64,000 nt of DNA from Poriferisphaera corsica (GTDB lineage: Bacteria > Planctomycetota > Phycisphaerae > Phycisphaerales > Phycisphaeraceae). How positions within the stretch are numbered: the stretch's first letter is position 1; the number at the start of each line of letters is the position of its first letter. Positions 30,649 through 44,747 of the stretch are shown in pieces. Where the stretch lies: assembly GCF_007747445.1 (NCBI RefSeq), contig NZ_CP036425.1, positions 310,001-374,000 on the forward strand, given 5' to 3'. Made by a program: the position numbers and the translations under genes. The notes beneath the pieces were generated by a model. That model was not told the origin of the DNA, made no database searches, and saw only the letters and a program-made list of their open reading frames with translations.

Positions 30649-30987
30649 ATCAATCTCCGTCTGCTTGTGCGTATTACGCAGCACACGAAGCCGTCACGTC
30701 ATCACCTCACACATGCCTAAAACATCCTGTTAGCATGCGCGCAAAACCCCACCCTTGCATGACGCAACTCTTAAGCGTCGATTTTAACCAAATATTCAAC
30801 ACGCAGCACGGGAAAAAACCTCACTTTCACCTCCAATACCACCATTTCCCGCATCGATACCCCTTTCGTATGCAAGATCCGCGCTAACCCTGCCGATAAC
30901 CACTTGTGAGCGAGCCGATTCAGTGCTAATGTCGCCTCAGTCACGGCTCATCCCTCCTCAAACCAATTAATCCTCGGAGCTCTTCTC
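30649..30987. other. divergent intergenic region, no gene seen
   Basis: 339 bases between the leftward large secreted protein and rightward manC. GGAG lies about 8 bases before the manC ATG. No clear -35/-10 pair, palindrome or RNA was recognised. Confidence 0.4.
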
Positions 30988-32085
30988 ATGAGATACGCAC
31001 TCATCATTGCCGGCGGGTCCGGTACTCGTCTCTGGCCTATGTCCACACAAGCAATGCCCAAGCAACTCATCCCCTTCATCAACGGTAAATCCCTCCTCCA
31101 AATCGCCGTCGAGCGACTCGAAAAAGTACTCCCGCACGACCAAATCTTCATTTGTGCCGGCTCCTCCATGAAGCAAGCCATCCTTGACGGCCTCCCCAAC
31201 TTCTCACCCAATAATTTCATCGAAGAGCCCACAGGCCGCGACACCCTCAACGCCATCGCGCTCTCCACCGCCATCCTCGCTCAAAAAAATCCCGACGCCG
31301 TCGTAGGCGTCTTCTCCGCTGACCAAGTCATCGAACCCGTCGACCAATTCGCTTCCGTCGTCGACACCGGCTACCAAATCGCCGAATCCACACCCGACTC
31401 ACTCGTCACCTTCGGCATCAAGCCCACGCACCCCGCCACAGGTTACGGCTACCTCCAGCTCGGTGCCGCTCTCCCCTCAAACAACGGCCTCATCGTGGAT
31501 CAATACAAAGAAAAACCCGATCTCTCCACAGCTCAAGCCTACCTCGACGCAGGTCCCGACCAATACCTCTGGAACTCAGGCATGTTCGTTTGGCAAGCCA
31601 AAACCCTTCTCGAATGTGTAAAACGCTATACACCAGATAATTACACTCAGATCAAATCGATCACCGATGCACTCGATACACCGCAGTACGACGCCATCCT
31701 CGCCGAGGTCTACCCCAAACTCCCCCGTATCAGCGTCGACTACGCCGTCATGGAGCCCGCCTCGCAAGACCCCGACATCCAGGTCATCGCCACCCCCATG
31801 CCCATCCAATGGCTCGACGTTGGCTCATGGCCATCTTTCAAAACAGTCTGCGATCATGACGACAACCAAAACGCGCAACCCAATACAAAATCAACGCTTA
31901 TAGATACGCAAAACACACTCGTCGCCTCGAACGATCCCAATCACCTCGTCACTGTTCTTGGCTGCTCCGACCTCATCGTCATCCACACACCGACCTCAAC
32001 GCTCGTTTGCCACAAAGATCATGCTGAGCAAATCAAAAACCTCCACAGTCAGATCGCCGAAACCCACGGCCCCGACTACCTCTAA
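30988..32085 (+). CDS. manC: mannose-1-phosphate guanylyltransferase
   Basis: 365-residue sugar-nucleotide transferase making GDP-mannose from mannose-1-phosphate and GTP, a precursor for exopolysaccharide and glycoprotein glycans. The nucleotide-binding loop GGSGTRLWP is at 9-17, followed by MPKQLIPF. Later motifs are EEPTGRDTLNAIAL, FSADQVIEP, GYGYLQLG, YKEKPD, WNSGMFVW and VDYAVMEPA, all in family order. The length fits the single-domain GMP type, without the isomerase domain of bifunctional ManC/AlgA. A FemAB-like PEP-CTERM-associated gene follows 368 bases downstream, consistent with a surface-glycan neighbourhood. Codons are strongly C-ending. Confidence 0.93.
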   Translation: MRYALIIAGGSGTRLWPMSTQAMPKQLIPFINGKSLLQIAVERLEKVLPHDQIFICAGSSMKQAILDGLPNFSPNNFIEEPTGRDTLNAIALSTAILAQKNPDAVVGVFSADQVIEPVDQFASVVDTGYQIAESTPDSLVTFGIKPTHPATGYGYLQLGAALPSNNGLIVDQYKEKPDLSTAQAYLDAGPDQYLWNSGMFVWQAKTLLECVKRYTPDNYTQIKSITDALDTPQYDAILAEVYPKLPRISVDYAVMEPASQDPDIQVIATPMPIQWLDVGSWPSFKTVCDHDDNQNAQPNTKSTLIDTQNTLVASNDPNHLVTVLGCSDLIVIHTPTSTLVCHKDHAEQIKNLHSQIAETHGPDYL

Positions 32086-32150
32086 CCCCCATCCCCCACC
32101 ATCCCCCATATTCTTCCCTCGTTTCTTCACCCCCCACCTCAACACCTGCA

Positions 32151-32181
32151 CAAGCCCGCCACCGTCGGTGGCGGGGTGTTA
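32151..32181 (+). repeat. palindromic repeat copy 1 (CAAGCCC...GGGGTGTTAT)
   Basis: Lies in the 368-base gap after manC. The stem CCCGCCACC / GGTGGCGGG (32155-32163 / 32167-32175) has loop GTC, is preceded by CAA and followed by GTGTTAT. It shares outer and apical bases with copies at 33594 and 42819 while the middle stem pairs differ in a compensated way. It may serve as the manC 3' hairpin. The rest of the gap holds only C-rich sequence and a small CGTGAA/TTCACG inverted pair. Confidence 0.65.
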
Positions 32182-32453
32182 TCCCATCCTATATCAGCCG
32201 CCTGCGTCTACTTCCTTCTTCCCCTCAATTCCAGTAGCCACGAGACAGGTCATCGGTTTTTCAATAACCACACCATTCCAAATCTCTAAAACGTGAATAT
32301 AACAGTGTTTAAAACGTAAATTTTCACGATCCCCATAATTCCGCGCCGATAATATCCACAGCAATTCCCTGTCCCTTTCACTTCAGCCCCTCTTTCCGAT
32401 GCCCGATAGGGTTTGTAGCAGTTATAACAGTTTTACTGAGGAACCCATCAACC

Positions 32454-33542
32454 ATGCTCGTGCACATCGAACATGACTTCGACGAAAAGACTTGTGATCA
32501 GATCGCGCACTATCTCCGCGCATCAAAATCACCCGATGTCGCGATCGAGCACGATGTCCGTTGGCTTCGCATCCTTCGCGACGGCCTCGGCCACCGCGTC
32601 ATGGCCATCATCGCTCGTGATCGCAACGATCAAATCCACGGCTACCTCCCGCTCGCGCTCACACGCTCCCCCCTCTTCGGCCGCTTCCTCGTCTCACTCC
32701 CATACCTTAACCGCGCCGGCATCATCGCCGATTCCACCGAAATCGCTCACGCCATCATCCAAAAAGCTGCCGAAGCCGCTCAATGGGTCAACGCTCAATA
32801 CCTCGAACTCCGTCATCTCGATCAACAACTCCCTTCTTTCAGCACCTCAAAATCCTCACCTATCAATCAGATCAAGTCCGACAAAGTCCTCATGCAACTC
32901 GACCTCACTTCCATTCAGGACAATGATGCCCTCTGGCAGCATTACTCCGCCAAAGTACGCAATCAAATCCGCAAAGCAGAAAAGCACCCTCTTTCCATCC
33001 AATGGGGATCAAGCCATCTGCTCGACGCTTTCTACGGAATTTTCGCCATCAACATGCGCGATCTTGGCACCCCCGTTTACTCCAAACGTCTCTTTGAACG
33101 CATCATCGCCGAACTGCCTGATAACGCAGAGTTTGGCATCGTTTCACACGAAAACCAACCCGTTGCCGCAGCACTCCTGCTTCACGACGACCTCGCATCC
33201 TCACCCCGAACACAAATCCCCTCCGCATCATGCCTTCGCGCATTCAACCACACCAACGCAAACATGTTCATGTACCACAACCTCTTGCAGCGCGCGCTTA
33301 GTCGCGGCTCACACATCTTCGACTTCGGACGCTCAACGCCCGATACAGGCACATTCCGTTTCAAAAAACAATGGGGCGCAACCCCCACCGCCTGTCATTG
33401 GCACTATCACCTCCGTCGCGGCTCCATCAATGCCGTTCGACCTGAAAGTGCATCCATGCAGCGCAAAGTCGAACTCTGGAAAAAAATGCCCGTTTGGATG
33501 ACCAAAGCCATCGGCCCCGCCATCGTCAAGGGCATCCCCTAA
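32454..33542 (+). CDS. FemAB-related protein, PEP-CTERM system-associated
   Basis: 362-residue GNAT-fold protein with two acetyltransferase-like lobes. Recognisable blocks are YHxAWxx-like DVRWLRILRDGLGHRVM, LPYLNRAGI, YLELRHLDQQLP, the charged NQIRKAEK helix, FAINMRDLGTPVYSKRLFE (205-223), HDD...SCLRAFNHTNANMFMY and the strongly conserved FDFGRSTPDTGTFRFKKQWG (about 300-319). The last motif typifies the FemAB-like family found with exosortase/PEP-CTERM exopolysaccharide loci. It probably transfers an aminoacyl or acyl group to a surface glycan or its lipid carrier; the substrate is unknown. GAGGA lies 10 bases before the ATG. Four PEP-CTERM open frames occur elsewhere in the window. Confidence 0.85.
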   Translation: MLVHIEHDFDEKTCDQIAHYLRASKSPDVAIEHDVRWLRILRDGLGHRVMAIIARDRNDQIHGYLPLALTRSPLFGRFLVSLPYLNRAGIIADSTEIAHAIIQKAAEAAQWVNAQYLELRHLDQQLPSFSTSKSSPINQIKSDKVLMQLDLTSIQDNDALWQHYSAKVRNQIRKAEKHPLSIQWGSSHLLDAFYGIFAINMRDLGTPVYSKRLFERIIAELPDNAEFGIVSHENQPVAAALLLHDDLASSPRTQIPSASCLRAFNHTNANMFMYHNLLQRALSRGSHIFDFGRSTPDTGTFRFKKQWGATPTACHWHYHLRRGSINAVRPESASMQRKVELWKKMPVWMTKAIGPAIVKGIP

Positions 33543-33544
33543 AT

Positions 33545-33560
33545 CCCCCCCCCCTTTTTT
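33545..33560 (+). repeat. homopolymer tracts C10 then T6 directly after the femAB-like stop
   Basis: Ten C (33545-33554) followed by six T, starting 3 bases after the stop codon. A similar C8T7 follows the next gene (35173). These tracts are prone to slippage; no hairpin accompanies them, so they are not standard terminators. Confidence 0.8.
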
Positions 33561-33593
33561 GATAAGCACGAACTGTATATCTATCGCTTCAAT

Positions 33594-33625
33594 CAAGCCC
33601 ACGACCGCCGGTCGTGGGGTGTTGT
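33594..33625 (+). repeat. palindromic repeat copy 2 (CAAGCCC...GGGGTGTTGT)
   Basis: Stem CCCACGACC / GGTCGTGGG (33598-33606 / 33610-33618) with loop GCC, preceded by CAAG and followed by GTGTTGT. Downstream ACAAC can pair with GTTGT for a second small hairpin. Compared with copy 1, the middle pairs are ACG/CGT instead of GCC/GGC, so pairing is maintained. Confidence 0.7.
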
Positions 33626-33675
33626 CTATCCCAACAACCAATCGCCTGCAATCATCCATGACACCCTCCTCCTCA

Positions 33676-33708
33676 CCCCCCCCCCTTACCCCCTCCATCG
33701 CCTATAAT
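33676..33708 (+). promoter_or_regulatory. candidate leaderless promoter with a C10 tract at the -35 position
   Basis: Perfect TATAAT (33703-33708) ends 7 bases before the ATG at 33716, so transcription would start at or next to the start codon. About 17 bases upstream, where a -35 element should be, is a run of ten C (33676-33685). Tract-length change would alter spacing or activator binding. Confidence 0.4.
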
Positions 33709-33715
33709 GCCCTCC

Positions 33716-35170
33716 ATGAAAGCATCGCTGTCTATTTTCCGTCTCGCCGCATCATTCGCCATTCTCGCGGCCACTTTCTCATTCTTTACCCCGCTCAACG
33801 CACACCACGAATCAACCCCGCACACCCATCCGCAAAACATTGCACCGGTTCAAAACAACAAAGGCACGCAGCAAGCCAAGCCCCGCCTCTCCAACTATCA
33901 GCTTCTCGGCATCGACGCGGCTAAGCAGCGCTTAGGCCGCAAAATGCCCACCGGCAAAAACATTATCTTCGGTCACGTCGAGGGCCCCGCAAAATCCTAT
34001 ATCCCCAACACAAAACTTCTACGATTCTCCAAAGTCAATTTCAATAAACGCTCCGGCCCATCCTCCGTCGCAGGACACGCCACGACAACCGCCTCCAAAA
34101 TCTACGGTTCGTCAGGACTCGCACCCGGCGTTACCAACGTCAATCTCTTCTCCGCGAACTCATGGATGGGCCCCGACTTCCTCGGCCTCGGCACAGGTAA
34201 ACCACCCAAAAACGAAGAAATTAATATCTTTACTAACTCATGGATAGGTGCTGAGTTTCCCGGCGCGACGCAACTCCTCCGCCGCATCGACTACATGATC
34301 GACAATAACGGAGCCATCGTCGTTGCCGGCGTCAACAACGGTCGCAACACACAAGTCCCACCACTTGTCGCCTCCTCATACAACGGAATCGCCGTCGGCA
34401 CATGGGGCGGCGAAGGTTCCTCCGGCAACTACACAACCATCGAAACCACCGGCCGAGTCAAACCTGATATCGTCGGTATCTACGACAAAACCTCTTTTAC
34501 AACCCCGCTTGTCGCCGCGACCGCCAGCCTCATCCTCGAACTCGCACAAACCCGCGAGCTCCCTCAACTTGCCCGCCCCGAAACCGTCAAAGCCATCATC
34601 CTCGCCGGTGCCACCAAACCTTGGAACTGGAAACCAGAGCCCGGCCACACTCAAGACAAATACCTCGGTGCAGGTATTCTCAACCTCAATAACGCTCTTC
34701 TCATCGCAGAGGCGCCTCAAACCCATACTTCAAACCCACTCCCCGATTTCGGTTGGGACTATGCATCGATTAGCCCAACTCAAACGCACACCTATAACTT
34801 CACCATCCCCAATAACACAACCAAACCGCTCACCGTTTGTCTTGTATGGAACCGTCACATCCTCGGCAAGTCCTACAAGCTAACCATCAATAAAGAAAAG
34901 AACATCACCCGTGATATCTGGGTCGATACCCCCTCTATCGCAGACTTAGACCTTCGCCTACTCAAAGTGAATCCAGACAATACAACGCGCATTGTGACGC
35001 TTTCAGATTCTGAGCGTGACAATGTCGAATACCTCTATCTGCCAAAACTAACGTCCGGCAACTACCAGCTTCAAGTAGTCCGCCAACCCGACAAACTAAA
35101 ACCACAAGCCCCTTGGCCTTACGCCATCGCCTATCGCTTCGGTGGGGATACTTGGCAAGGCGACAACTAA
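33716..35170 (+). CDS. exported subtilase-like (S8 fold) protein with atypical catalytic Asp
   Basis: 484-residue exported protein with a signal peptide at 1-29. The core resembles subtilisin-like peptidases: His motif SSVAGHATTTASKIYG (H121), a candidate oxyanion Asn in AGVNNGR (207-208), and the Ser motif KTSFTTPLVAATASLI (S260). The first acid strand reads NIIFGHVEGPA, with Glu89 where the Asp of the usual DTG/DSG box should be, so activity is uncertain. The C-terminal 150 residues form a beta-rich P-domain-like region (HTYNFTIPNN ... YQLQVVRQPDKL). I start at 33716; an upstream in-frame ATG at 33707 overlaps the TATAAT. It may process or be part of the cell surface. Confidence 0.7.
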   Translation: MKASLSIFRLAASFAILAATFSFFTPLNAHHESTPHTHPQNIAPVQNNKGTQQAKPRLSNYQLLGIDAAKQRLGRKMPTGKNIIFGHVEGPAKSYIPNTKLLRFSKVNFNKRSGPSSVAGHATTTASKIYGSSGLAPGVTNVNLFSANSWMGPDFLGLGTGKPPKNEEINIFTNSWIGAEFPGATQLLRRIDYMIDNNGAIVVAGVNNGRNTQVPPLVASSYNGIAVGTWGGEGSSGNYTTIETTGRVKPDIVGIYDKTSFTTPLVAATASLILELAQTRELPQLARPETVKAIILAGATKPWNWKPEPGHTQDKYLGAGILNLNNALLIAEAPQTHTSNPLPDFGWDYASISPTQTHTYNFTIPNNTTKPLTVCLVWNRHILGKSYKLTINKEKNITRDIWVDTPSIADLDLRLLKVNPDNTTRIVTLSDSERDNVEYLYLPKLTSGNYQLQVVRQPDKLKPQAPWPYAIAYRFGGDTWQGDN

Positions 35171-35172
35171 AT

Positions 35173-35248
35173 CCCCCCCCTTTTTTTCCTTGCCCCTCTC
35201 CACATCTACATCTACCCCCCCCCCCCCCACACACACACACACACACAC
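35173..35248 (+). repeat. poly-C and (AC)10 microsatellite after the subtilase-like gene
   Basis: C8T7 at 35173-35187, then a C14 run (35215-35228) continuing straight into ten AC units (35229-35248). Such compound simple repeats are rare in bacterial genomes. The remaining gene-free stretch to 35773 has several small inverted pairs (for example AGCCG/CGGCT near 35630-35660) but no RNA or gene I can support. Confidence 0.9.
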
Positions 35249-35773
35249 CACCGCCACAAACCACACCCACATATGTAAACTGGTTATAGCAAGTTAAACT
35301 AACTAATAATTAGATAGTATGTACAACGTGTGAATACACAGAATCTGATGCTCTGTCACATTAGTTAATCAATTCTCATTATCACCAGATTAAATTCAAT
35401 GCACATGATCACATCTGCATTTTATGCATGCATACACAGAATAACGGGTGGCATGCTTATTCATGACATAATGACTAGATTAGATATGATTCCGTCTATG
35501 ACGATCAGGCAATGTAGGCTGACACTTGTGAGCAATATCCCTTTTGCTCCGATGTCATCGCTGAGAAATATGATCACGATCTTCCCATAGCTGAAGTTTC
35601 AATTAAATCCCGTCGATTCAACATGCGAAGCCGTACAGTTTTTATGTTAGGGGCACGCGGCTAATCACAAGCGCATTCCGATCACATCACGTGATCACCT
35701 CAAGCACAAAAATGCATGCGTTTGATAGAAAAGAGATGACGCAGTGATCCGTACACTGGTCAGGATGTTTTTC

Positions 35774-36211
35774 ATGCAGATCGAGAATAATCAGCAAGAC
35801 CCGCCTAAAGATGTGTTGGCGAGAATCGTTGGGGTTGCCGATGGCCACGAAATTGTCACCGCACAATTCATTGACGATAACGCCAGCGAACAATCTCAAA
35901 TCTCACTCGAAGGCGCTCAAGCCCTCGATACGTACCTCGAATCCCTCACCTCGCAGGTCAACCAGCTCCATGAAGCCATGATGCGTCAAGACATCGAGCA
36001 ACTCGAAGATGTCGTTGAGGACATCAAACGCGGTGCCGGCAGTTACGGGCTACGACGCGTTGCTTCCATGGCTGCGAAGCTCGATGAAGAGATCGAAGGT
36101 GATGAGAGCATCATCTCGCTTGTGAATTGCGTCTCAGAACTTTCCGAGCTTTGTCGCGATTTGATCGGCGATAACATGCCAAATGATGATGACTTCTTGC
36201 CCGGTGCTTAA
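35774..36211 (+). CDS. Hpt-like domain protein lacking the phospho-histidine
   Basis: About 145 residues, all-helical C-terminus. Residues 60-130 (LHEAMMRQDIEQLEDVVEDI then KRGAGSYGLRRVASMAAKLD) resemble the histidine phosphotransfer (HPt) four-helix bundle. The consensus AHxLKGSAGNxG aligns to VEDIKRGAGSYG, putting Glu82 where the phosphorylated His should be. It may therefore be a non-phosphorylatable scaffold or an inhibitor of a two-component relay. Starts at 35744 (GTG) and 35765 (ATG) are alternatives; AGG sits about 9 bases before 35774. It is monocistronic, with a good terminator. Assignment is by pattern only. Confidence 0.6.
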   Translation: MQIENNQQDPPKDVLARIVGVADGHEIVTAQFIDDNASEQSQISLEGAQALDTYLESLTSQVNQLHEAMMRQDIEQLEDVVEDIKRGAGSYGLRRVASMAAKLDEEIEGDESIISLVNCVSELSELCRDLIGDNMPNDDDFLPGA

Positions 36212-36268
36212 ACGAGCGAACAAAGCTGAACGAATGGCGTATTAAACACAGAAATCATGTTACAAAAG

Positions 36269-36298
36269 CGCTCTGTCGAGGTGGCAGAGCGTTTTTTT
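36269..36298 (+). terminator. rho-independent terminator after the Hpt-like gene
   Basis: CGCTCTG (36269-36275) pairs with CAGAGCG (36285-36291), followed by seven T. Confidence 0.88.
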
Positions 36299-36837
36299 AT
36301 TTCCAACTCATTGGTGTATCACACGATAGTTCAAAGACTTAGCTCAAACGTAGATCATCGTACAACTCGCTTCACCTAGCCACGGCAGATTTGCCGAAAC
36401 ATTCTCACGACATCCCGCGTCTATATAGACTGCAATGCTTCATATGGGTCGACCATCAAAATGTGTGTTTAACCTTGATGATTTGGAGTCGCATGGGAAG
36501 CGAAACCCCCATTTTTAGCGAGTTATAGGGCATCACTGATTAACTTGGGTCTAAAAGGTCGATAATAAACTGAAAATACGCGTATGAAGTGACTTATGCG
36601 CTTCTGAGGGCGAACCGCCCTTGACGCTTTCACGAATAAAAGGGATAAAGGGTGTTCAAATGAGAATTTGGGGGATTTAACCATTTTGGGCAGTCGCAGG
36701 ATTGGAGGCGGCTTGGGATCGAGGGGGACTGAGAGGATCAGGGGGGCTGGGAGATAACTTGGGACGGGGCTGGGCGTATAAAGCCCATGAAATTAAAGCT
36801 TTAGAAATATAAACGCAGACAATGCGGAGATGGTCAG
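36299..36837 (+). promoter_or_regulatory. 539-base gene-free region with one promoter candidate
   Basis: TTGACG (36621-36626), a 17-base spacer and GATAAA (36644-36649) form a reasonable promoter for the SH3-domain gene, giving a leader of about 180 bases. That leader is G-rich (GGGGGA, GGGGCT repeated). No gene or known RNA motif was recognised. The base composition of the plus strand changes from C-rich (left) to G-rich (right) across this interval. Confidence 0.35.
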
Positions 36838-38181
36838 ATGAATCGACTCAAGAGACTCAGCGGATACAGCTTATTTGTGATTATGGCAGTTGCCATGATG
36901 GGTTTTGTCTGGGCAGAAGATGGCCCGTACCTCGCCGAGGTGAATTGGGACAAAGTCGATGTCATGAGTGGGGCGGGCAAGCGTGTTTACTACAAAGTGG
37001 GTGAGCTGAAGAAGGGCGATACAGTCACCGTCATCGGCCGCGTGTATGGCTGGTACCGGATTAAATGTACAGACAGCGTTTATAGTTACGTGTCCAAGGC
37101 TTATGTCGACATGAAGGGCGATCCCAAGGTTGGTGTCGTCAATTCCAACGGCACCGAAGTTAAAGCTGGCATGATGAACGGCAAGGAAAGCGATCATCAC
37201 CGTGTGCAACTGCTCCTCAATGAAGGAGATACAGTCCGCATCGTTGGCGAGCTTGGCAGCCTGTACAAGATTGTTCCTCCGGAAGAAGCAACCGTCTTCA
37301 TCGAGCCTGGCGCGTTGCGATCCGTTTCAACTGCGTTGCAGATGAAGAAGCAAGAAGAAGCAGCTAGGCAGGCTCAGCAGCCAGTTGCTGTGAAGCAAAC
37401 GCCCGTTAAAGCATCGAACCTCAGCCTTGCTGAACGCGTAAAGCAGGCGACAGCGAAGAAAAACGCAGAAGCTCAAGCTGCTGCTAATACTGAAGTTAAA
37501 GGTCAGGTTATTGCTGCGACACCTGCCGGAACCACGCCGGTTGTAAAACCCGCCGAAACGACTGGCCTGACACTCAGCAAACAGACCGAGCAAGTTAAAA
37601 CGAACAAAGACGAAGTGAAGTACATCGCGGGCAGCAAAGGCGCGATTCTCGATGAGTCCGGCATCTCCAAGGAGCTTGAAACGCTTGAGAAGAAGATGCA
37701 GGAACTAACCAAGAAGAAGCTCGAAGATCAGCCGCTGGATGTGATGATTAAGGCTTATGAGGAGATGCTTGCTAAGAAGAGTGTCAGCGAGATCGATAAG
37801 GAAGTGATCAAGCTTCGCCTTGAAGCGCTCAAGCACAACAAGGATTTGTTGTCGTTGCTGGCAACGATTGAGGAAGCGGAAAAGCCTGTGGTTGTTGAGG
37901 TTAAAAAAGAAGAAGTGCCGGTGATCGAGTATGACGCTGTGGGGCAATTGCTCGCCAGTGCGGTGTATGACGGTTCGACGTTGCCTCGGATGTACCGTTT
38001 GGTTGATCCGGCGAGCAATCGTACGTTAGCGTATGTGAAGCCAGGCCAATTGGTGGATGGTCGCGCGACATTGGGCCGATTGGTGGGCATTGTTGGCTCT
38101 CAGAGCTTTGATCAGTCGCTTAAGCTGAACGTGATCAGTGTTGAGAAAATCGACGTGCTTGAGAAGACAGCAAAACGCTAA
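36838..38181 (+). CDS. exported protein with two bacterial SH3-like domains
   Basis: 447 residues. A signal peptide (about 1-26, ending VWA-ED) is followed by two SH3b-like units, 30-92 (LKKGDTVTVIGRVYGWYRIK ... YSYVSKAYVD) and 97-160 (LLNEGDTVRIVGELGSLYKI ... ATVFIEPGAL), typical of domains binding cell wall or protein partners outside the membrane. A Lys/Ala/Gln-rich linker (165-270) and a charged helical region (275-375, likely coiled coil: ISKELETLEKKMQELTKKKL) lead to a C-terminal beta domain. GGAG lies 8 bases before the ATG. It is monocistronic, with a strong terminator. Confidence 0.8.
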   Translation: MNRLKRLSGYSLFVIMAVAMMGFVWAEDGPYLAEVNWDKVDVMSGAGKRVYYKVGELKKGDTVTVIGRVYGWYRIKCTDSVYSYVSKAYVDMKGDPKVGVVNSNGTEVKAGMMNGKESDHHRVQLLLNEGDTVRIVGELGSLYKIVPPEEATVFIEPGALRSVSTALQMKKQEEAARQAQQPVAVKQTPVKASNLSLAERVKQATAKKNAEAQAAANTEVKGQVIAATPAGTTPVVKPAETTGLTLSKQTEQVKTNKDEVKYIAGSKGAILDESGISKELETLEKKMQELTKKKLEDQPLDVMIKAYEEMLAKKSVSEIDKEVIKLRLEALKHNKDLLSLLATIEEAEKPVVVEVKKEEVPVIEYDAVGQLLASAVYDGSTLPRMYRLVDPASNRTLAYVKPGQLVDGRATLGRLVGIVGSQSFDQSLKLNVISVEKIDVLEKTAKR

Positions 38182-38205
38182 TCATTGATTAGAAGATGAA
38201 TATCT

Positions 38206-38239
38206 AAGACGCAGGCTTTCGGGTCTGCGTCTTTTTTTT
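38206..38239 (+). terminator. rho-independent terminator after the SH3-domain gene
   Basis: AAGACGCAG (38206-38214) pairs with CTGCGTCTT (38225-38233) within a run of eight T. Confidence 0.9.
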
Positions 38240-38739
38240 GTGTACGCTGATTGTTCAGAATTTGGACAAGTGTGTGCGCACGTTTTGTGTGGGGATTGAA
38301 CGCAAAAATCAAAAAATCCCGGCGCGCACAAATGCGCTCAAATCTGATCAAAACAGTTTTAAAGACTTATGATTGCAGGTGATAAGATCGGATTTTGAAG
38401 TCGCTTGAAATCGTCAAAGAATCACAAACTTTGGTTAGTAATAGCCAAGGTTTGGCCTGTTTTAGTGAGGAAACATCTAAAAACACAGCTTTTACACAAC
38501 CGATTTTGCGCACCGATGCGCGCGTGAGAAAATAATCGTGCGCACAAACGCGTCCTCCGGCGACGGGTGTGACTCAATTTCAATTTGGTTGATAGGGAGT
38601 TATGTGATCGATTTTTTAGATGGAGGATGAAGTTGAAGGTAAAGTTGTGATTGAGAGCGAAAGTTGTTGGTGGGGTATTATGAAAAATCAGAAATTGTCA
38701 GTGAGCGTGTGATGAAAGTTGTTAAAGAGTCGGATAATC
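38240..38739. other. gene-free region with four GCGCAC motifs
   Basis: 500 bases without a supported gene. GCGCAC occurs at 38276, 38324, 38508 and 38540. The first and last sit in the identical palindrome GTGCGCAC (38274-38281, 38538-38545), suggesting protein-binding sites upstream of the sirtuin gene. Otherwise A+T-rich; no promoter pair is convincing. Confidence 0.4.
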
Positions 38740-39576
38740 ATGGCTAATCATAAGATAGATGGTAGGTTGATTGAAGTTTTAAGGAGAGCGACTTCTGGGA
38801 GAAGGGGGAAGGTTGTGGTATTGACGGGGGCAGGGGTGAGCGCGGGGAGTGGGGTGCCAACGTTTCGGGATGCTTTAACGGGGTTGTGGGCGAAGTATGA
38901 TCCGATGGCGCTTGCGACGCCGGGAGCTTTTGCGAAGGATCCGGCATTGGTGAGCGAGTGGTATGACATGAGGCGGATGATGGTGTTGGGGTGTGAGCCG
39001 AATGAGGGGCATCGGGCGCTTGTGCGGTTAGAAGATTTGATGAAGAAAAAGGGTGGTGCGTTTTGTTTGTTGACACAGAATGTGGATCGGTTGCATCAAC
39101 GGGCGGGGAGTGAGACGGTGGTGGAATTGCATGGGAGTTTGCTTGTGTGGCGCGATGAGTTGACGGGTGAAGAGGTGTTGTGCGATGGGAAGGAGAATTT
39201 GCCGAGCTATCCGTGGATTAGAGAAGATGAAGAAAAAGGGCATGAGAGCAATCGGGGAAGCAAGGGCGGAAGCAGGGGGGGGATGGGGATGATGAGGCCG
39301 GGGGTTGTCTGGTTTGGAGAGATGTTGCCGGAGGAGGCGGTGAGGGCGGCGGATGAGGCAGTGGGAAGTTTAGAGGAGGGGGATGTGTTTCTGAGTGTGG
39401 GTACGAGCGGCGTGGTGTATCCGGCGGCGGGGTATATGGATGAGGCGAAGCGGCGAGGGGCGGTGACGGTGGAGGTGAATTTGGAGCGGACTGCTTTAAG
39501 TGACGGGGTGGATTGGTGCTTGCTGGGCAGAAGTGAGGAGGTTTTGGGTGCATTGGTTGAGGAGGTGATGGGATAA
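38740..39576 (+). CDS. NAD-dependent deacylase, sirtuin family, zinc-site lost
   Basis: 278-residue SIR2 protein that would remove acyl groups from lysines using NAD. NAD-binding GAGVSAGSGVPTFR (30-43), TQNVD (112-116), catalytic HG (H131) and GTSGVVYPAAG are intact. The class III acyl pocket Y-x-x-R is present as EWYDMRR (Y75, R78), so desuccinylase-type activity is likely. The zinc module normally following WFGE-side strands is degenerate: between residues 135 and 190 there is one Cys (C148) instead of four, and a Gly/Ser/Met-rich insert (GSKGGSRGGMGMM) encoded partly by a G8 run. ATG 38740 preferred over TTG 38719. The HEAT-repeat gene follows. Confidence 0.88.
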   Translation: MANHKIDGRLIEVLRRATSGRRGKVVVLTGAGVSAGSGVPTFRDALTGLWAKYDPMALATPGAFAKDPALVSEWYDMRRMMVLGCEPNEGHRALVRLEDLMKKKGGAFCLLTQNVDRLHQRAGSETVVELHGSLLVWRDELTGEEVLCDGKENLPSYPWIREDEEKGHESNRGSKGGSRGGMGMMRPGVVWFGEMLPEEAVRAADEAVGSLEEGDVFLSVGTSGVVYPAAGYMDEAKRRGAVTVEVNLERTALSDGVDWCLLGRSEEVLGALVEEVMG

Positions 39577-39763
39577 AGGTCGGTTTGTTGGCGATGTTTA
39601 CGAAGACGATGGGGTGTTGATTCGCATTGTGTGAGTGGGGTGGCGATGAAGGAGAAGGAAGTTGGGGAGAAGTGGGGAGGATGTGGAGGTGGGTGACATA
39701 AGGGTGGCATGCGGGGATGCGGATTGGGTAGCGGTTGAATGGGGAGGTGGGTATGGTGAGGGG

Positions 39764-40765
39764 ATGAAGCGAAATGATCTGGAATCGGAACTGGCGGAGA
39801 TTAGTGCATTGGGGCAGGGCCAGGTTGAGGCGGATGCGTTGTTGAACGCGCTAAAGGGGGGGCTGAAGCATAGGAGCAATTTTGTGGTGGCCAAGGCGGC
39901 GGAGGTGGTGGTGAAGCGAGGGGTGAGCGAAAAGCTGAGTGACGAGTTAGTGAAGGCGTATGAGCGGTTTTGCAAGCATGCGGTGAAGAGTGATCCGGGG
40001 TGCAAGGCGAAGATCGCGGTGGTGGATGCGCTAAGGGAGGGGGCTGTTTGGGTGGAGAGCTTGTATTTGGATGCGGCGAGGCGGAGGCAGATGGAGCCGG
40101 TGTGGGGGGGCCGCGTGGATACGGCGGGGGGATTGCGATGCGCGGGGGTGAACGGGCTCATGGCGGTGGGGTATGGAGATGTGATGAATGAGTTGGCGAT
40201 GCTATTGGGTGATGAGGAAAGGGAGGTGCGTGTGGGGGCTGCGCGGTTATTGGGGGATTGGGGTGATGCGGTGGGCGAGCCGCTGCTGAGGTTGCGGGTG
40301 CTGTGCGGAGAGGAAGATGGGGAGGTTCTGAGTGAGTTGTTTGGCTCGATTTTGGCGGTGAATTCGGCGAGTGGGCTGGATTTTGTGGGTAGGTATTTGA
40401 TTGGTGGTGAGGGTGGGAAGCAAGGGGGGAATGAGGGGGGGGATGATGAGGTGAGGCGGTGCGCAGCGCTGGCGATCGGGCAGTCACGGAATGGGAAAGG
40501 ATTGGAATGGTTGGTGAGAAGTTTTGAAAAGGAGCTGGATGCGGGGTTGCGGGAGACGATATTGATGGCGATGGCGATGTTGCGGAATGAGGATGGGTAT
40601 GGGTATTTGTGTGATCTGATTAAGGATGCGGATGAGCGGACGGCGGAGCTGGCGGTGCGGGCGATGGGGATTTATTACTACGATGAGAAGGTGAGGGAGA
40701 TGGTGATCACAGCGGCGGAAGGGCGAGAGGAGTTGGATGAGGTATTGCGAGAGGTGATTGCGTGA
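39764..40765 (+). CDS. HEAT-repeat-like protein
   Basis: About 333 residues, nearly all alpha helical, with repeated ~30-residue pairs such as VRVGAARLLGDWGDAVGEPL, RRCAALAIGQSRNGKGLEWL and AELAVRAMGIYYYDEKVREM, typical of HEAT or PBS-lyase-type scaffolds that bind proteins. A Gly-rich loop (GGEGGKQGGNEGGDDE, about 215-230) is encoded by G6 and G8 runs and interrupts the helical array. I start at 39764, preceded by GAGGGG; an upstream start at 39662 would add a poorly conserved Gly-rich leader. Partner unknown. Third positions are mostly G or T. Confidence 0.7.
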   Translation: MKRNDLESELAEISALGQGQVEADALLNALKGGLKHRSNFVVAKAAEVVVKRGVSEKLSDELVKAYERFCKHAVKSDPGCKAKIAVVDALREGAVWVESLYLDAARRRQMEPVWGGRVDTAGGLRCAGVNGLMAVGYGDVMNELAMLLGDEEREVRVGAARLLGDWGDAVGEPLLRLRVLCGEEDGEVLSELFGSILAVNSASGLDFVGRYLIGGEGGKQGGNEGGDDEVRRCAALAIGQSRNGKGLEWLVRSFEKELDAGLRETILMAMAMLRNEDGYGYLCDLIKDADERTAELAVRAMGIYYYDEKVREMVITAAEGREELDEVLREVIA

Positions 40766-41071
40766 TGGACAGGTGAGCGTGGTTGGAGAGGTGGTTGAGG
40801 GGGGATGAGGGGGGGATGAGGGTTATCGGATGGGGGGATGGACTTGAGGGGTGGTGCGAAAAAAGTTGTGTAAGAAAGGCAGGGGGGGAGGGTTTTGTCG
40901 GCGATGCGGAGAGGAGGGGGATGGTTAGGAATTAATGAGATGAAAAAGTGAGGGGGGGTTGATGTTGCGCGCGCGGCTGTCGATGTGATAAGTGCGGAAG
41001 GATGAAAGGTGGGATTGGGGGAGATGAAGATTGTGTTTGTTGTCTGATAAAAGAATTGATGACAGCATTTA
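40766..41071. other. G-rich gene-free spacer
   Basis: 306 bases rich in GGGG runs on the plus strand. No promoter, hairpin or gene recognised before the structured repeat that begins at 41072. Confidence 0.4.
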
Positions 41072-41198
41072 TAGAGCGTTTTACGAAATGACCTGGATCG
41101 TTGACCAAAGGGTCGTTTCGTAAAAGGTACCTATTACAAGAGTTGGCTGCTGAATTCTGAGTAATCGGATGTTCCAGATAATCACGCAACTTGCTCTG
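41072..41198 (+). repeat. structured 127-nt element, copy D
   Basis: Begins TAGAGCGTTTTACG and ends CACGCAACTTGCTCTG, which pair as a terminal inverted repeat with a 3x3 internal loop. Inside, TTTTACGAAA (41079-41088) pairs with TTTCGTAAAA, around an apical GACC-AAAG-GGTC hairpin (41103-41114). It ends 38 bases before the ATG of the next gene and so may form its leader RNA. See the related copies at 41960, 42678 and 50646. Confidence 0.65.
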
Positions 41199-41236
41199 GA
41201 GATGGGAAAAGACAGAGGCGGATAAAGGAGATCGAC

Positions 41237-41731
41237 ATGCCAAGGCCTATACGAATTGGTGAGATTCTGGTTGAACAGGGTGTATTGAGTGAGCAACAGG
41301 TATTTGAGATTATTCAGGAGCAGAAGCGGGTGAAGAGGCCGTTTGGCGTGCTTGCTGAGACGATGTTTGATGTGACGGTGGAGTCGATTGAGAATGCGTG
41401 GGTGGAGCAATATCACCGGACGACGGGGACATTGGATCTGAATAAGGTTGAGATTGATGCGGATGCGCTGCGGATGATTAACAGACGTCAGGCGTGGCAG
41501 TTTGAGATGTTGCCGATCCGTCAGGAAGAGACGGGTGAGGTTTTGATTGCTGCGAGCCGAAGGCGGTTGGCGAGAGCGGTGACGTTTGCGACGCTGAAGT
41601 TTGATCGAGTTGCGTTTTTCCGGATAGCGGAAAGTGAACAGCTTCGAGATTTTCTAAGAAAACACTACCCGATGCCTGAAGTTTCTGATGAATTATTAGA
41701 AAAGGTTAAAGCGATGACCTCGGGTGGCTGA
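41237..41731 (+). CDS. stand-alone GspE/MshE N-terminal-like domain protein
   Basis: 164 residues. RIGEILVEQGVLSEQQVFEI (6-25) and the following ALRMINRRQAWQFEMLPIRQ ... VLIAASRRRLARAV (about 75-115) match the N-terminal (GspE-N / MshEN-like) domain of type II secretion and type IV pilus ATPases, here without the ATPase. In MshE this domain binds cyclic di-GMP, so a signalling role is conceivable, but the binding residues cannot be verified by eye. AAGGAG sits 7 bases before the ATG. The 5' leader contains structured element D. No terminator follows. Confidence 0.75.
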   Translation: MPRPIRIGEILVEQGVLSEQQVFEIIQEQKRVKRPFGVLAETMFDVTVESIENAWVEQYHRTTGTLDLNKVEIDADALRMINRRQAWQFEMLPIRQEETGEVLIAASRRRLARAVTFATLKFDRVAFFRIAESEQLRDFLRKHYPMPEVSDELLEKVKAMTSGG

Positions 41732-41852
41732 TAACTATATTACAGTCGTACAAGTGCAAGCTAAGATTGCTTGCACACACTTGATGCTGGTTAGAGATTT
41801 ATCAGGGAAGCATCAGGGACATGCAATGTGTTCTGCGTTCACGGCTCCATGT

Positions 41853-41883
41853 ATCAATCTATCCATGTAATAGATAGATTGAT
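41853..41883. repeat. 11-bp inverted repeat
   Basis: ATCAATCTATC (41853-41863) and GATAGATTGAT (41873-41883) with a 9-base loop, in the gene-free stretch 41732-43000. Similar CTATCTATTA-type sequence recurs near 44530 and after element B near 50775. Confidence 0.6.
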
Positions 41884-41959
41884 GTGAGAGTTTGTTTGAA
41901 CGGGGAGGGTTTACGACTCGTTAGGGTACAATTTGTGATTATTTGACATGGCTATTGTT

Positions 41960-42087
41960 TAGAGTGTCTTGCATGGTTGTTCATGTGTTGGCCGGTAGGT
42001 CAGTAACATGAAACGAAGGTATCTAATGGATCCTTTACAGCTATCATGCACTGACAAGACCTATGGATATCCGTGCAAACTGTTCTA
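41960..42087 (+). repeat. structured 128-nt element, copy A
   Basis: Same length and orientation as copy B at 50646, and about three-quarters identical by eye, including the shared ACATGAAACGAAGGT. The ends TAGAGTGTCTTGCATGG and CCGTGCAAACTGTTCTA pair with several G-U pairs. TTCATGT / ACATGAA forms an inner stem around the GGCC-GGTA-GGTC apical hairpin. Flanking sequence has no gene. Confidence 0.7.
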
Positions 42088-42677
42088 GCTGTATTGATTT
42101 GTCTTATGGCGATCGATTGCTGTATTGCATGATTGGTTGTTGTGAGGTCATCGGATTTTAACTGCTCAATGCTCTGCATTGTTCTGGCTTTGGCGTGCCC
42201 GTTGCCGAGGTCTAAGGTCTGTGGGATGGATTGATACGGGGGAGGAAGATTAAGTAGGGAGGACTCGTGAGTGAGGGGATATTCAGTGGGCATTGGGGAG
42301 GGATAACTGAATCGGGGGGAGATCGTAGGAGGATCAAGATTGAGGGGCAATGAAGACCGAGGGGTGGGAAGGATGCGGGGAGAAAGATTGGGAGAGGGGA
42401 TTTTTTTGGGGGGGAGGATGATGTAGAGCATTTGTCAGTCGTCTTTGGATCGTACGATTGGCAAGGCCACTCTACGGGCAAGAGAAGGGCACGCTTGGGA
42501 GAGCGTGTTCTAAGGGGCGGTGGGAGAAAGAGCCTTGTAGGTAATTGCTGGATCTGCGAGGCATTTGAGGAACCGTCTTTAACGAGACGGTTTCTTATGA
42601 AGGGTAATGTGGAAGTGATAGAGAAAGAATCTCGGTAATTGCTTGGTTTGTGGGAGGTGAGATGAGTTGAAGGTGTT
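42088..42677. other. gene-free spacer with a terminator-like hairpin
   Basis: No supported gene in 590 bases; frames here are short and lack Shine-Dalgarno or recognisable products. AACCGTCT-TTAACG-AGACGGTT (42571-42592) followed by TCTT is a terminator-like hairpin on the plus strand, and a weaker CACGCT/AGCGTG pair lies near 42490-42505. These may end a transcript that includes element A. Confidence 0.4.
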
Positions 42678-42801
42678 TAGAGCGTCTTGCGAGATGATCT
42701 GTTCGGTGACCAGTGTGTCGTTGTATGAGAAGATTATTTACATAGGCCGGCTGCCGATTGTTTCGCAGGGCATGTGGTACATCATGATGCAACTTGCTCT
42801 A
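42678..42801 (+). repeat. structured 124-nt element, copy C
   Basis: 5' TAGAGC...TTGC...ATGAT pairs with 3' ATCAT...GCAA...GCTCTA: TAGAGC with GCTCTA, TTGC with GCAA and ATGAT with ATCAT, separated by small symmetric internal loops. The central GAC-N6-GTC hairpin (TGACCAGTGTGTCG) aligns with copies A, B and D. The middle sequence is otherwise quite diverged, yet overall length is conserved. Confidence 0.65.
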
Positions 42802-42818
42802 GGGGGTGGTTGAACAAC

Positions 42819-42845
42819 ATCTCATGACCGGCGGTCATGGGCTTG
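42819..42845 (-). repeat. palindromic repeat copy 3
   Basis: Read on the minus strand this is CAAGCCCATGACC-GCC-GGTCATGAGATGTTGT, the same layout as copies at 32151 and 33594 but with ATG/CAT middle pairs and one G-T pair. It sits between element C (ends 42801) and the truncated element E (starts 42853). Confidence 0.65.
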
Positions 42846-42852
42846 AGGGGTC

Positions 42853-42894
42853 AAGTACGTTTTGCGTGGTAATTCACGTGTGAAAACTGTTCTA
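42853..42894 (+). repeat. truncated relative of the structured element (copy E)
   Basis: 42 bases. CGTTTTGCGTGGTAATTCAC matches the start of copy B with two differences, then the sequence jumps to AAAACTGTTCTA, the 3' end of copy A. About 85 internal bases are absent, so it looks like an internal deletion derivative. Confidence 0.55.
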
Positions 42895-42910
42895 ATCAAG
42901 TGTTTGATGA

Positions 42911-42943
42911 AAAGAAAACCCACACCGATGAGGGTGTGGGTTT
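42911..42943 (-). terminator. rho-independent terminator of the Bax1-like gene
   Basis: AAACCCACACC / GGTGTGGGTTT (42916-42926 / 42933-42943), followed on the minus strand by TTCTTTTC. It lies 58 bases past the stop. Confidence 0.8.
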
Positions 42944-43000
42944 GTTGGTTTTGGGTTGTCGTTATGGGGAATGTGGGAATGTGTGTGGAAGAGGGGGGGG

Positions 43001-43768
43001 TTAGCGGTTGCGGAGTTTAGCGAGGAGGCGGAGGATTTCGATGTATAGCCAGACGATGGTGACGAGGAGGACGAAAGCGCCGAACCATTCCATGTATTTT
43101 TTTGCGCCGGTTTGTGAGCATCGTTCGATCATGTGGAAATCGAGGACGAGGTTGAGTGCTGCGAGAACGACGACGATGCCAGAGAAGGCGATGGAGAGGG
43201 GTGAGCCGTTGTTCATGTTGAGGATGGGGATGTCGACGCCGAAGAATCCGAGGATGAATGCGACGAGGTAGAAGAGCATGAGTCCGCCGGTGGCTGCGGA
43301 GACGCCGACGATGAATTTGTTGGTGACGGGGATGATGCGTGTTGAGTAGAGTGCGAGCATGACGGCGAGGACGCCAAGGGTTGCGCCGACGGCTTGTATG
43401 GCGATGCCTGGGTATTTGATGTTGACCAGTGCTGAGAGAGCGCCGAGGAAGAGGCCTTCAAAGACGGCGTAGATGGGTGCGGTGATGGGTGCGGCTTTTT
43501 TGAAGAACATGGTGGCGAAGCCGATGAGAAGTCCGCCGATGAGACCGCCCATCATGTAGGGCATGATATCGGCGATGGCGTTGGGGTTTGCAGATGAGGC
43601 GTATTTGTAGGTGAGTTGCCAGGTGATGGCACCGGCGACGGTAAGGATGGCGAGCAGGATACCGGTTTTGATGGCGGTGCCTTGGACGGTCATGACGTCG
43701 GTGTGCTCGTAGGAGTCGGCACTCGAACGGAAGGTTTCTTCTTTAAGCAGTGGGTTGGCATTGAACAT
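43001..43768 (-). CDS. Bax inhibitor-1/YccA family membrane protein
   Basis: 255 residues with seven hydrophobic helices, starting at about residue 33 (IKTGILLAILTVAGAITWQL). Family features are the long N-terminal cytoplasmic arm (MFNANPLLKEETF), the APIYAVFEGLFLGALSALVN segment, GVSAATGGLMLFYL and the closing LNLVLDFHMIERCSQTGAKK then YMEWFGAFVLLVTIVWLYIE. It corresponds to the bacterial YccA/YbhL-like group, proposed to act as pH-sensitive calcium leak channels or protease modulators; role in this organism unknown. It is monocistronic, preceded by a C-rich (coding strand) leader and followed by a terminator. Confidence 0.93.
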   Translation of the reverse strand: MFNANPLLKEETFRSSADSYEHTDVMTVQGTAIKTGILLAILTVAGAITWQLTYKYASSANPNAIADIMPYMMGGLIGGLLIGFATMFFKKAAPITAPIYAVFEGLFLGALSALVNIKYPGIAIQAVGATLGVLAVMLALYSTRIIPVTNKFIVGVSAATGGLMLFYLVAFILGFFGVDIPILNMNNGSPLSIAFSGIVVVLAALNLVLDFHMIERCSQTGAKKYMEWFGAFVLLVTIVWLYIEILRLLAKLRNR

Positions 43769-43984
43769 GGGGGGGATATCTCCCGGATTTTTTTGTTTTA
43801 ATTGGGTACGATTTATAACGTGGGCCTATTTTAACGTTTTATTGAATGAGAGGGGATGGTTTTGTGTGTGGGCAGTGCGGAGGGATGAAGGGATGTGAGT
43901 AAGGATGGATAAAAGAGGGCTGAGCGGGGAACAAAGCGGATTTGAAGGGGGTGATGGGATGGGGAGGATGAAATGGAGGGGGGG

Positions 43985-44413
43985 ATGTATGATATGAGGA
44001 TGAGGTATTTAGCGATTGATTTTGGTGATAAGCGGACGGGTGTGGCGATGGGGGATGACGTGTTGCGGATTGCGACGCCGATGGATGTGGTGCGGACGGG
44101 GAGTGCTGTGGAGCGGGAGCGGTTGTTGATGAAGATGATTGAGGCGGAGGAGCCGGATGGGTTGGTGGTGGGTGTGCCGCTGGGGAGGGATGGGGAGGTT
44201 GGGGATGCGGCGAAGAAGATTATGGCGTATGGGGAGTCGATCGGAAAGAGAAGCGGAGTTGAGGTTCATTATATTGATGAGCGGATGACGAGTGTGGTGG
44301 CGGATGAGCAGATGGCGATGACGGGGTTGACGCATAAGCAGAAGAAGGCGAGGCGGGATGCGCTCGCGGCTGCGGCGATTTTGAAGCGGTTTTTAGATCA
44401 GTTGCCGGGGTAG
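43985..44413 (+). CDS. ruvX: Holliday junction resolvase-like RuvX (YqgF)
   Basis: 142 residues of the YqgF/RuvX RNase H-like fold, which acts in pre-16S rRNA 5' end processing and has been proposed as a Holliday resolvase. YLAIDFGDKRTGVAM gives the first Asp motif, LVVGVPLGRDG the second strand, and YIDERMTSVVADE the third acidic motif. The C-terminal DALAAAAILKRFLD is typical. ATG 43985 has GGAGG 5 bases upstream; ATGs at 43994 and 44000 are alternatives. It lies alone between the leftward Bax1-like and Pro/Ala-rich genes. Confidence 0.93.
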   Translation: MYDMRMRYLAIDFGDKRTGVAMGDDVLRIATPMDVVRTGSAVERERLLMKMIEAEEPDGLVVGVPLGRDGEVGDAAKKIMAYGESIGKRSGVEVHYIDERMTSVVADEQMAMTGLTHKQKKARRDALAAAAILKRFLDQLPG

Positions 44414-44583
44414 GAACATGGGCGGTGTGGAATAAGTGGATTTGAGATGAGGGGGATGGGGGTTTGGTAAGTAATAAAGAATATTTGTGAGGCATGCTTG
44501 ATGGGCGAGACGTTTTTAGTATAGAACTATCTATCTATTAGTTAGTTTGTTTTGCTATAGCCAAAAAGGGGTGGCAGGTAGAA

Positions 44584-44618: not shown

Positions 44619-44747
44619 CAAAAAACGTGGAAGCTGAAAGGTGTGTAAGGAGAAGGGAGGTGGGGCTGTGTGCGGCGGAGCAAGAGAAAGGGAAGTGTTT
44701 TGTGTCGTGGCGGTTTAGCTGTTACGAGTCGAAAAAAGGGAGATGTG

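What the first reader, a model, noticed from the sequence alone, without database searches (positions are those of the whole stretch)
32151..42845. Three dispersed palindromes with compensatory stem changes
Copies at 32151, 33594 and 42819 (minus) share CAAGCCC before the stem, ACC-GNC-GGT at the tip and G(T/A)TGTT(A/G)T after it, but the middle stem pairs are GCC/GGC, ACG/CGT and ATG/CAT. Keeping pairing while changing sequence points to a selected hairpin, either a lineage-specific terminator type lacking a strong T-run or a REP-like repeat.
Basis: seen in the sequence. Interest (0 to 1): 0.55.

Follow-up and report, generated by a model that had tools for sequence, protein, structure and literature searches.

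The report
Palindromes pointing at periodic skew centres
In the sponge bacterium Poriferisphaera corsica, about 150 small hairpin repeats point almost without exception toward evenly spaced sites, roughly one every 45,000 bases, where the chromosome's strand composition abruptly reverses, as if the chromosome had dozens of origin-like centres.

Summary
The three palindromes belong to a family of at least 150 copies in this genome (Poriferisphaera corsica KS4) with real stem covariation. They resemble REP repeats, and the one full-length Y1 (HUH) transposase gene sits among copies. They are not terminators: between codirectional genes they lie sense and antisense (29 and 17) and no T-run follows.

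What fixes their orientation is larger. Silent-site C/G skew reaches about +-0.9 and forms a sawtooth: abrupt C-rich to G-rich reversals every 45 kb (15 spacings, CV 0.23), independent of gene strand, with slow return between. Clusters of an intergenic motif (GYGCGCACAAA) mark the reversals; a motif profile trained elsewhere ranked 16 of 17 reversals above every other window in 754 kb. Outside the discovery stretch, 90 of 90 palindromes within 15 kb of a motif locus point toward it. The sister species has sawtooth and motif but only 2 palindromes, so the palindromes are passengers that report a polarity. A/T skew still mostly follows ordinary replichores from dnaA, so the sawtooth needs a second, motif-centred process. 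Origin-like bidirectional DNA synthesis is my leading, unproven reading.

The parts
32149..32208 (+). palindrome copy 1 with its conserved 3' tail (stem GCC/GGC)
33592..33652 (+). palindrome copy 2 with tail (stem ACG/CGT)
42787..42847 (-). palindrome copy 3 with tail (stem ATG/CAT)
38182..38814 (.). intergenic motif locus toward which all three palindromes point; motif hits start near 38273 (-), 38322 (+) and 38538 (+)
   Evidence: sites and sequence; window at 348251, sixth highest of the 454 kb stretch
35442..37442 (.). reversal of silent-site skew, estimated at 36442 with roughly 1-2 kb uncertainty: plus strand C-rich to the left, G-rich to the right
   Evidence: raw GC skew changes sign between 34-38 kb and 36-40 kb
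17760..36442 (+). half-domain with C-rich plus strand (silent-site skew rising to 0.83)
36443..58177 (-). half-domain with G-rich plus strand (silent-site skew to -0.96), independent of gene strand

Best explanation
The palindromes are a species-specific, REP-like family of non-autonomous elements. They were probably spread by the genome's single full-length Y1 (HUH, IS200-like) transposase, which acts on single-stranded DNA hairpins. They were fixed in one polarity because the chromosome is organised into about 45-kb units. Each unit is centred on an intergenic cluster of the motif GYGCGCACAAA, and from each centre a bidirectional, strand-asymmetric DNA process runs outward. That process makes the outward strand G-rich and, I infer, regularly exposes one strand as ssDNA, so elements land only on the other (C-rich, inward-pointing) strand. 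My preferred identity for it is origin-like local DNA synthesis in addition to ordinary replication from oriC. Shown: the family, its covariation, the sawtooth, the motif at the reversals, and the palindrome polarity. Inferred: mobilisation by this transposase, exposure of ssDNA, and the nature of the process.
For: Family and covariation. Y1 gene flanked by copies; the sister species lacks the gene and has 2 copies. In 69 of 69 intergenic regions tested, palindrome orientation equals the C-rich strand with the hairpin masked. 34 of 35 copies in two contiguous stretches point to the nearest reversal; the exception lies near a stretch end. Outside the 454 kb discovery stretch 90 of 90 copies within 15 kb of a motif locus point to it, 93 of 94 within 20 kb. 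Motif at reversals: 26 of 27 GYGCGCACA within 3 kb, 3.6 expected; held-out 300 kb: 9 of 9 strict sites within 3 kb; profile trained on 516-1786 kb ranks 16 of 17 reversals above all other windows. Cis effect: the sister has an extra motif cluster at 2995 kb where the syntenic P. corsica interval has none; the ortholog to its right changes sense skew from -0.54 to +0.53 and the four to its left go from 0.14-0.60 to 0.80-0.92. The outward strand is both G- and T-rich, the usual leading-strand sign.
Against: If local origins were the only source of fork direction, A/T skew should be a pure sawtooth too; instead it is offset by replichore (-0.112 over 9 complete cycles right of dnaA, +0.135 over 6 cycles left of it) with only a small sawtooth part. 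No leading-strand gene bias: genes on the G-rich strand against the C-rich strand are 146 to 124 in P. corsica and 47 to 72 in the sister (|skew|>=0.3). The motif is not a DnaA box, and DnaA-box counts at reversals are too small to judge. The Y1 link rests on proximity and co-occurrence; the two downstream copies could equally be ordinary copies beside two convergent genes, and the upstream copy is degraded (no hairpin). Two of 17 reversals exceed or lack the pattern: one (54836) has no strong motif window.
Confidence: 0.5

Rival explanations
1. The motif clusters load a directional machine other than a replisome (a loop extruder, helicase-nuclease or repair complex) that travels outward up to about 25 kb and leaves strand-biased mutations. 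The palindromes simply record the strand it exposes. Ordinary oriC replication does all the copying.
For: A/T skew follows replichores while C/G skew follows the motif units, so two processes are needed. No leading-strand gene bias within units. The motif is unlike DnaA boxes.
Against: The small A/T sawtooth has the same sign as ordinary leading-strand bias, and the gradual decline to zero midway is what converging forks would give. No known machine of this kind leaves a silent-site skew near 0.9 (from general knowledge, not tested).
Confidence: 0.33
2. Strand composition is itself selected as a polar code (like KOPS or Chi polarity) that steers a DNA translocase toward or away from the motif sites; the palindromes are part of that code.
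For: Strict polarity over the whole genome; effect seen in intergenic and silent sites alike (correlation 0.91 over 130 regions).
Against: The sister has the sawtooth and 145 strict motif sites but only 2 palindromes, so the palindromes are dispensable. A skew at nearly every silent site is more than a sparse code needs.
Confidence: 0.08
3. The palindromes are a lineage-specific transcription terminator or mRNA 3'-end hairpin.
For: 96 of 100 copies are intergenic; 68 of those 96 lie downstream of a gene read in the same direction, many within 100 bases of its stop codon; REPs elsewhere can stabilise mRNA or terminate transcription (PMC6006769, passages).
Against: No T-run. In codirectional regions 17 of 46 copies are antisense to both neighbours, and 11 copies sit between divergent genes. 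Orientation is explained by skew without exception in 69 regions. Canonical terminators precede some copies.
Confidence: 0.04
4. Polarity is only a target-sequence effect: the element inserts wherever a C-rich, G-poor strand exists, for whatever reason that strand is C-rich.
For: Flanks on the element strand are about 36-38% C and 10-12% G whatever the gene orientation. This would give the same 69 of 69 agreement.
Against: It does not explain the sawtooth or the motif. It is compatible with the main account and concerns only how the palindromes acquire polarity.
Confidence: 0.3

Closest known systems
REP/REPIN repeats with RAYT (TnpAREP) transposases (PMC3733652 abstract and two sections; PMC6006769 passages and one section)
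   Same: Short palindrome, more than 100 copies, mostly intergenic, predominantly downstream of genes, covarying stem, conserved bases at the foot, one full-length Y1 gene flanked by copies.
   Different: Foot is TCAA/CAAG, not GTAG or CGTC; copies are mostly single, not inverted doublets; nearly absolute polarity toward motif-defined centres, which I did not see described in the passages read.
Class 3 TnpAY1 of Planctomycetes with atypical flanking hairpins (PMC6006769, section 27 read)
   Same: Same phylum, about 180 residues, HUH motif and catalytic-Tyr region, hairpins in high copy number around the gene.
   Different: The Y----Q signature and the CnGA foot given for class 3 are not met here.
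Replication origins (bacterial oriC; archaeal multi-origin chromosomes; mammalian skew N-domains, the last recalled)
   Same: Abrupt C-rich to G-rich reversal on the plus strand, outward strand rich in G and T, gradual decline to the midpoint, a discrete intergenic cis element at each reversal.
   Different: About one per 45 kb in a bacterium; C/G asymmetry far stronger than A/T; motif unlike DnaA boxes; replichore-scale A/T skew persists; no gene-strand bias.
IS200/IS605 insertion polarity on the lagging-strand template (PMC6006769 abstract start)
   Same: A Y1 transposase acting on ssDNA predicts strict orientation relative to fork direction.
   Different: Here the polarity follows local motif centres and not the two replichores.

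Membership tests
REP repeats | short palindrome of about 20-40 bp in high copy number | tested here: met
   116 copies at up to 1 mismatch against 0 control; at least 150 by covariance model
REP repeats | mostly intergenic | tested here: met
   96 of 100 copies by a home-made gene caller; the 4 others are antisense inside two predicted ORFs
REP repeats | GTAG or CGTC tag at the foot | tested here: not met
   foot is TCAAG: C at -1 in 99, A at 0 in 99, A at +1 in 100, G at +2 in 96 of 100 copies
REP repeats | a RAYT-type Y1 transposase gene flanked by copies | tested here: met
   180-residue ORF, PF01797 just above cut-off (23.1 against 23 bits), with HAH and a conserved YI..H region; two copies downstream and a degraded one upstream
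REP repeats | hairpin cleaved or moved by its transposase | not testable with these tools
   needs biochemistry
Class 3 TnpAY1 | Y----Q signature | tested here: not met
   the query has YIKRHV at the aligned place
Class 3 TnpAY1 | CnGA foot on the flanking hairpins | tested here: not met
   foot TCAAG
REP_Tyr_transpos (NF047646) | score above NCBI cut-off of 80 bits | tested here: not met
   17.5 bits, E 0.0028
intrinsic terminator | hairpin followed by a T-run, sense to the upstream gene | tested here: not met
   no T-run in the profile of 100 copies; 29 sense against 17 antisense in codirectional regions
replication origin | reversal of leading-strand skew at a discrete intergenic locus | tested here: met
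replication origin | DnaA boxes | tested here: inconclusive
   2 of 3 strict TTATCCACA (recalled consensus) within 2 kb of reversals, 0.3 expected; loose boxes 6 of 31, 2.7 expected; sister 0 of 2 and 3 of 20
replication origin | leading-strand gene bias away from the origin | tested here: not met
   146 to 124 and 47 to 72 genes
replication origin | initiation of DNA synthesis there (copy-number peak, nascent strands) | not testable with these tools
   needs sequencing of growing cells

The most novel reading that the evidence does not exclude
A bacterial chromosome carries on the order of 95 regularly spaced, motif-defined sites at which DNA synthesis starts bidirectionally, alongside a conventional oriC. 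The sites are a dispersed repeat family present in several genera of one Phycisphaerae family, and a mobile REP-like palindrome records the fork polarity around each of them. (95 is 4.29 Mb divided by the mean spacing of 44.6 kb, an extrapolation from 754 kb.)
Probability: 0.38. Interest if true: 0.97.

Novelty: categorically new. Interest (0 to 1): 0.88.

Why it matters
Bacterial chromosomes are thought to be copied from one origin, so their strand skew has two arms. Here C/G skew reverses about every 45 kb around a discrete intergenic motif, at an amplitude (near 0.9 at silent sites) that is itself extreme. Whatever the process, it is strong, directional, tied to a cis element, and heritable enough to set most silent sites in the genome. 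If it is DNA synthesis, it would be dense multi-origin replication in a bacterium. If it is not, it is an unknown machine that writes strand asymmetry. Either way it is directly testable in two cultured species. The palindromes matter as an independent-looking reporter of polarity, and as a warning that motif orientation relative to genes can mislead when local strand composition is the real driver.

Tried and rejected
Gene-sense orientation: a first, weak gene caller gave 87 of 94 copies in the sense of the upstream gene, which looked like a terminator. A better caller, whose gene density (280 genes in 333 kb) resembles the published 3,714 genes in 4.29 Mb (PMC7783415 Table 1 passage), gave 68 of 96, and only 29 to 17 where genes run codirectionally. 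I discarded the first figure.

Pyrimidine-rich Rho-site idea: the C-rich flanks first suggested rut sites. Rejected because the C-rich strand is the same whatever the gene orientation and extends through silent codon positions (correlation 0.91).

Replichore explanation of palindrome strand: no two-arm pattern in 200-kb bins. My early impression of a plus-strand excess came from a truncated listing.

Transcription-driven skew: rejected because genes of both strands inside one unit share the same plus-strand skew. Ten window ORFs were checked against Pfam: 9 had a family; the one without was the antisense competitor of one that did.

Second DnaA paralogue as the special initiator: 53 of 61 relatives have two or more matches (52 have two, one has three), so it is not specific.

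Solved-structure search with the Y1 protein: no hit. Scan of genome contigs with the Y1 protein: nothing confirmed; with the palindrome pattern: 0 matches, own and very near genomes possibly left out.

Shared sequence at reversals beyond the motif: in P. corsica only weak pairwise similarity (70-80% over 120-191 bases in a few of 30 loci, some of the 30 overlapping); in two metagenome-derived relatives the loci are 80-91% alike over hundreds of bases.

Print searches (listings only unless said): in one open-access library without preprints. None of the listings describes periodic skew in these bacteria. SkewDB was searched for terms: no Planctomycetes or Phycisphaerae mention; it notes that multiple skew peaks might reflect multiple origins, inversions or assembly problems.
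Full report
What was claimed and what is there. The three palindromes are present as described. They are members of a dispersed family: 116 genome copies at up to 1 mismatch with 0 for the reversed control, and at least 150 by covariance model. The genome length, 4,291,168 bp, is that of Poriferisphaera corsica KS4 (PMC7783415 Table 1 passage; PMC10945688 passage), so I name the organism on length, supported by its nearest held relative having exactly the length published for P. heterotrophicis ZRK32 (5,234,020 bp).

Anatomy. The unit is TCAAGCCC-NNN-ACC-GCC-GGT-N'N'N'-GGGGTGT followed by a looser tail ending near GCCTGCAA about 50 bases from the start. Conservation starts sharply at the TC. 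On 91 of 100 collected copies (9 were left out of the alignment, not recorded one by one) 98.5% of stem cells pair and 129 cells carry double changes against 40.7 in shuffles. Stem type and tail similarity are correlated, so part of the covariation is subfamily descent and not independent repair of pairing. In the alignment of 91 copies there are 22 distinct stem types, one of them with a gap.

Transposase. Two PF01797 matches exist in the genome: an 85-residue fragment near 580.6 kb and a 180-residue ORF at 3.3295 Mb just after groEL. The latter has copies 14 and 74 bases after its stop codon in opposite orientations and a degraded copy upstream that keeps TCAAGCC and GGGTGT but not the hairpin. 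Relatives of the protein occur in 34 of 61 genomes, own genome included, and the sister species has none; the alignment with 19 of them shows the HUH and a conserved YI..H region. The sister has 2 palindromes. Of the other 59 relatives 4 have a single one-mismatch match each and 55 have none.

Orientation. Gene calls come from my own script; the first version was poor and is disowned. With the second, 96 of 100 copies are intergenic; 35 lie between convergent genes, 29 sense and 17 antisense between codirectional genes, 11 between divergent genes, and 4 have one neighbour unknown. Orientation instead follows composition: the palindrome lies on the C-rich strand in 69 of 69 intergenic regions tested (both neighbours scoring at least 25, length 80-1200, hairpin masked). 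My notebook says 67-68; I recounted the printed list and all 69 agree.

The sawtooth. Fourfold-site skew of flanking genes correlates 0.91 with intergenic skew over 130 regions. Inside the window, genes verified by Pfam on both strands share one plus-strand skew: between 38 and 57 kb plus-strand genes (Sir2, RuvX, UDPGP and others) end codons in G, the minus-strand Bax-inhibitor gene in C. Raw GC skew without any gene call shows the same reversal near 36-38 kb. In 454 contiguous kb there are 10 abrupt C-to-G reversals, in a held-out 300 kb there are 7; 15 spacings average 44.6 kb, SD 10.1, CV 0.23. Silent GC content is about 0.6-0.7 near reversals and about 0.35-0.5 midway. The sister shows the same with shorter spacing in 200 kb: 7 reversals, spacings 11.7-45.9 kb, most 28-33 kb. 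Four other relatives, 100 kb each, do not.

The motif. k-mers shared by reversal windows pointed to GCGCGCACAA. In the 454 kb, 26 of 27 GYGCGCACA and 17 of 18 GCGCACAAA lie within 3 kb of reversals (3.6 and 2.4 expected). In the held-out 300 kb: 9 of 9 strict, 17 of 20 and 14 of 17 for the looser forms. A profile from 47 sites at 516-1786 kb puts 9 of 10 reversals in the top 9 windows of the first stretch and 7 of 7 in the top 7 of the second, lowest hit 54.0, highest other window 35.5. The first stretch is where the motif was found, so only the second is a clean test. In the sister the top 6 windows are 6 of 7 reversals, within 3.9 kb. Genome-wide there are 79 strict sites (control 3) in 68 loci.

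Palindromes against motif. Of the 148 model hits that one search printed for this genome, 133 lie outside the first 454 kb; 90 of these are within 15 kb of a strict motif locus and all 90 point toward it; at 20 kb it is 93 of 94. 81 of 133 lie within 10 kb, random mean 36.6, maximum 55 of 500 trials. Against composition-defined reversals 34 of 35 agree; the exception at 4073761 sits in C-rich DNA near the end of the stretch, so its true centre probably lies beyond it. At the transposase locus two copies converge 60 bases apart without a motif nearby.

Cis effect. In the region syntenic between the two species (36 ortholog pairs, sense-skew correlation 0.82) the reversal next to the Sir2 gene is in both. 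The sister has a further motif cluster at about 2995 kb that P. corsica lacks: the four orthologs to its left have sense skew 0.84, 0.89, 0.92, 0.80 against 0.16, 0.60, 0.31, 0.14, and the gene to its right +0.53 against -0.54. This is the nearest thing to an experiment in the data.

Spread. The strict motif is enriched over its reversed control in several other genera of the family: 50 to 1 in G006, 22 to 0 in G015, 26 to 10 in G018, 17 to 2 in G005, 11 to 0 in G021 (101 genomes searched). G015 has a weaker sawtooth (about +-0.5) rising to a motif site; G006 only small local reversals. In both, many motif loci sit at contig ends and are 80-91% alike over hundreds of bases, so the loci are themselves a dispersed repeat family.

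Interpretation. Two processes are needed: A/T skew carries a replichore offset (-0.112 and +0.135 over complete cycles either side of dnaA at 361) with a small sawtooth, while C/G skew is nearly all sawtooth with small offsets (-0.049 and +0.079). Ordinary oriC replication accounts for the first. For the second, origin-like bidirectional synthesis predicts the sign, the shape and, through lagging-strand targeting known for IS608 and ISDra2 (PMC6006769, start of abstract), the palindrome polarity. It does not predict the lack of gene-strand bias or the different A/T to C/G ratio. I therefore give it about two chances in five.

Limits. All gene calls are mine; reversal positions are good to about 1-2 kb; only two stretches of P. 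corsica (754 kb) were mapped continuously; copy polarity could be acquired by target composition and so is not fully independent of the skew; the literature was searched in one open-access library only.

Noticed in passing
L057 (G000:C1:573000-576400), ORF on the plus strand of L057: Three palindromes lie antisense inside one long ORF, each within a repeated stretch of roughly 45 residues (HPLTAGQGLDE...SNGELDDE...); the ORF's end resembles an AddB-type nuclease (my reading, not searched). Intragenic REPs in repair genes are reported in PMC3733652 (section 15).
   Followed up: partly
L041, G000:C1:3534105, 3534233, 3534361: Three copies with the same stem at exactly 128-base spacing, apparently a local tandem duplication of a longer unit.
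   Followed up: no
L085 and L081 (sister genome G001): A different short repeat, roughly CAACGATACGYTCAAGTGAAAC, occurs several times in one orientation around the only two palindromes of the sister.
   Followed up: no
G015 and G006 contig ends (L268-L277, L279-L286): Metagenome assemblies break at motif loci, which are near-identical repeats there; motif loci may spread or be homogenised.
   Followed up: partly
G000 motif loci, for example 305033/305180, 3500971/3501118, 4011609/4011756; sister loci 2936169 and 3081692: Recurrent motif spacings of about 147-151 bases (exactly 150 and 149 in two sister loci) and about 217 bases.
   Followed up: no
G000:C1:580601-580816 (L031): An 85-residue ORF matching the first part of PF01797, probably a remnant IS200-like transposase.
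   Followed up: no
window 2996-3068: A tRNA gene, the only Rfam match in the window at gathering score.
   Followed up: no
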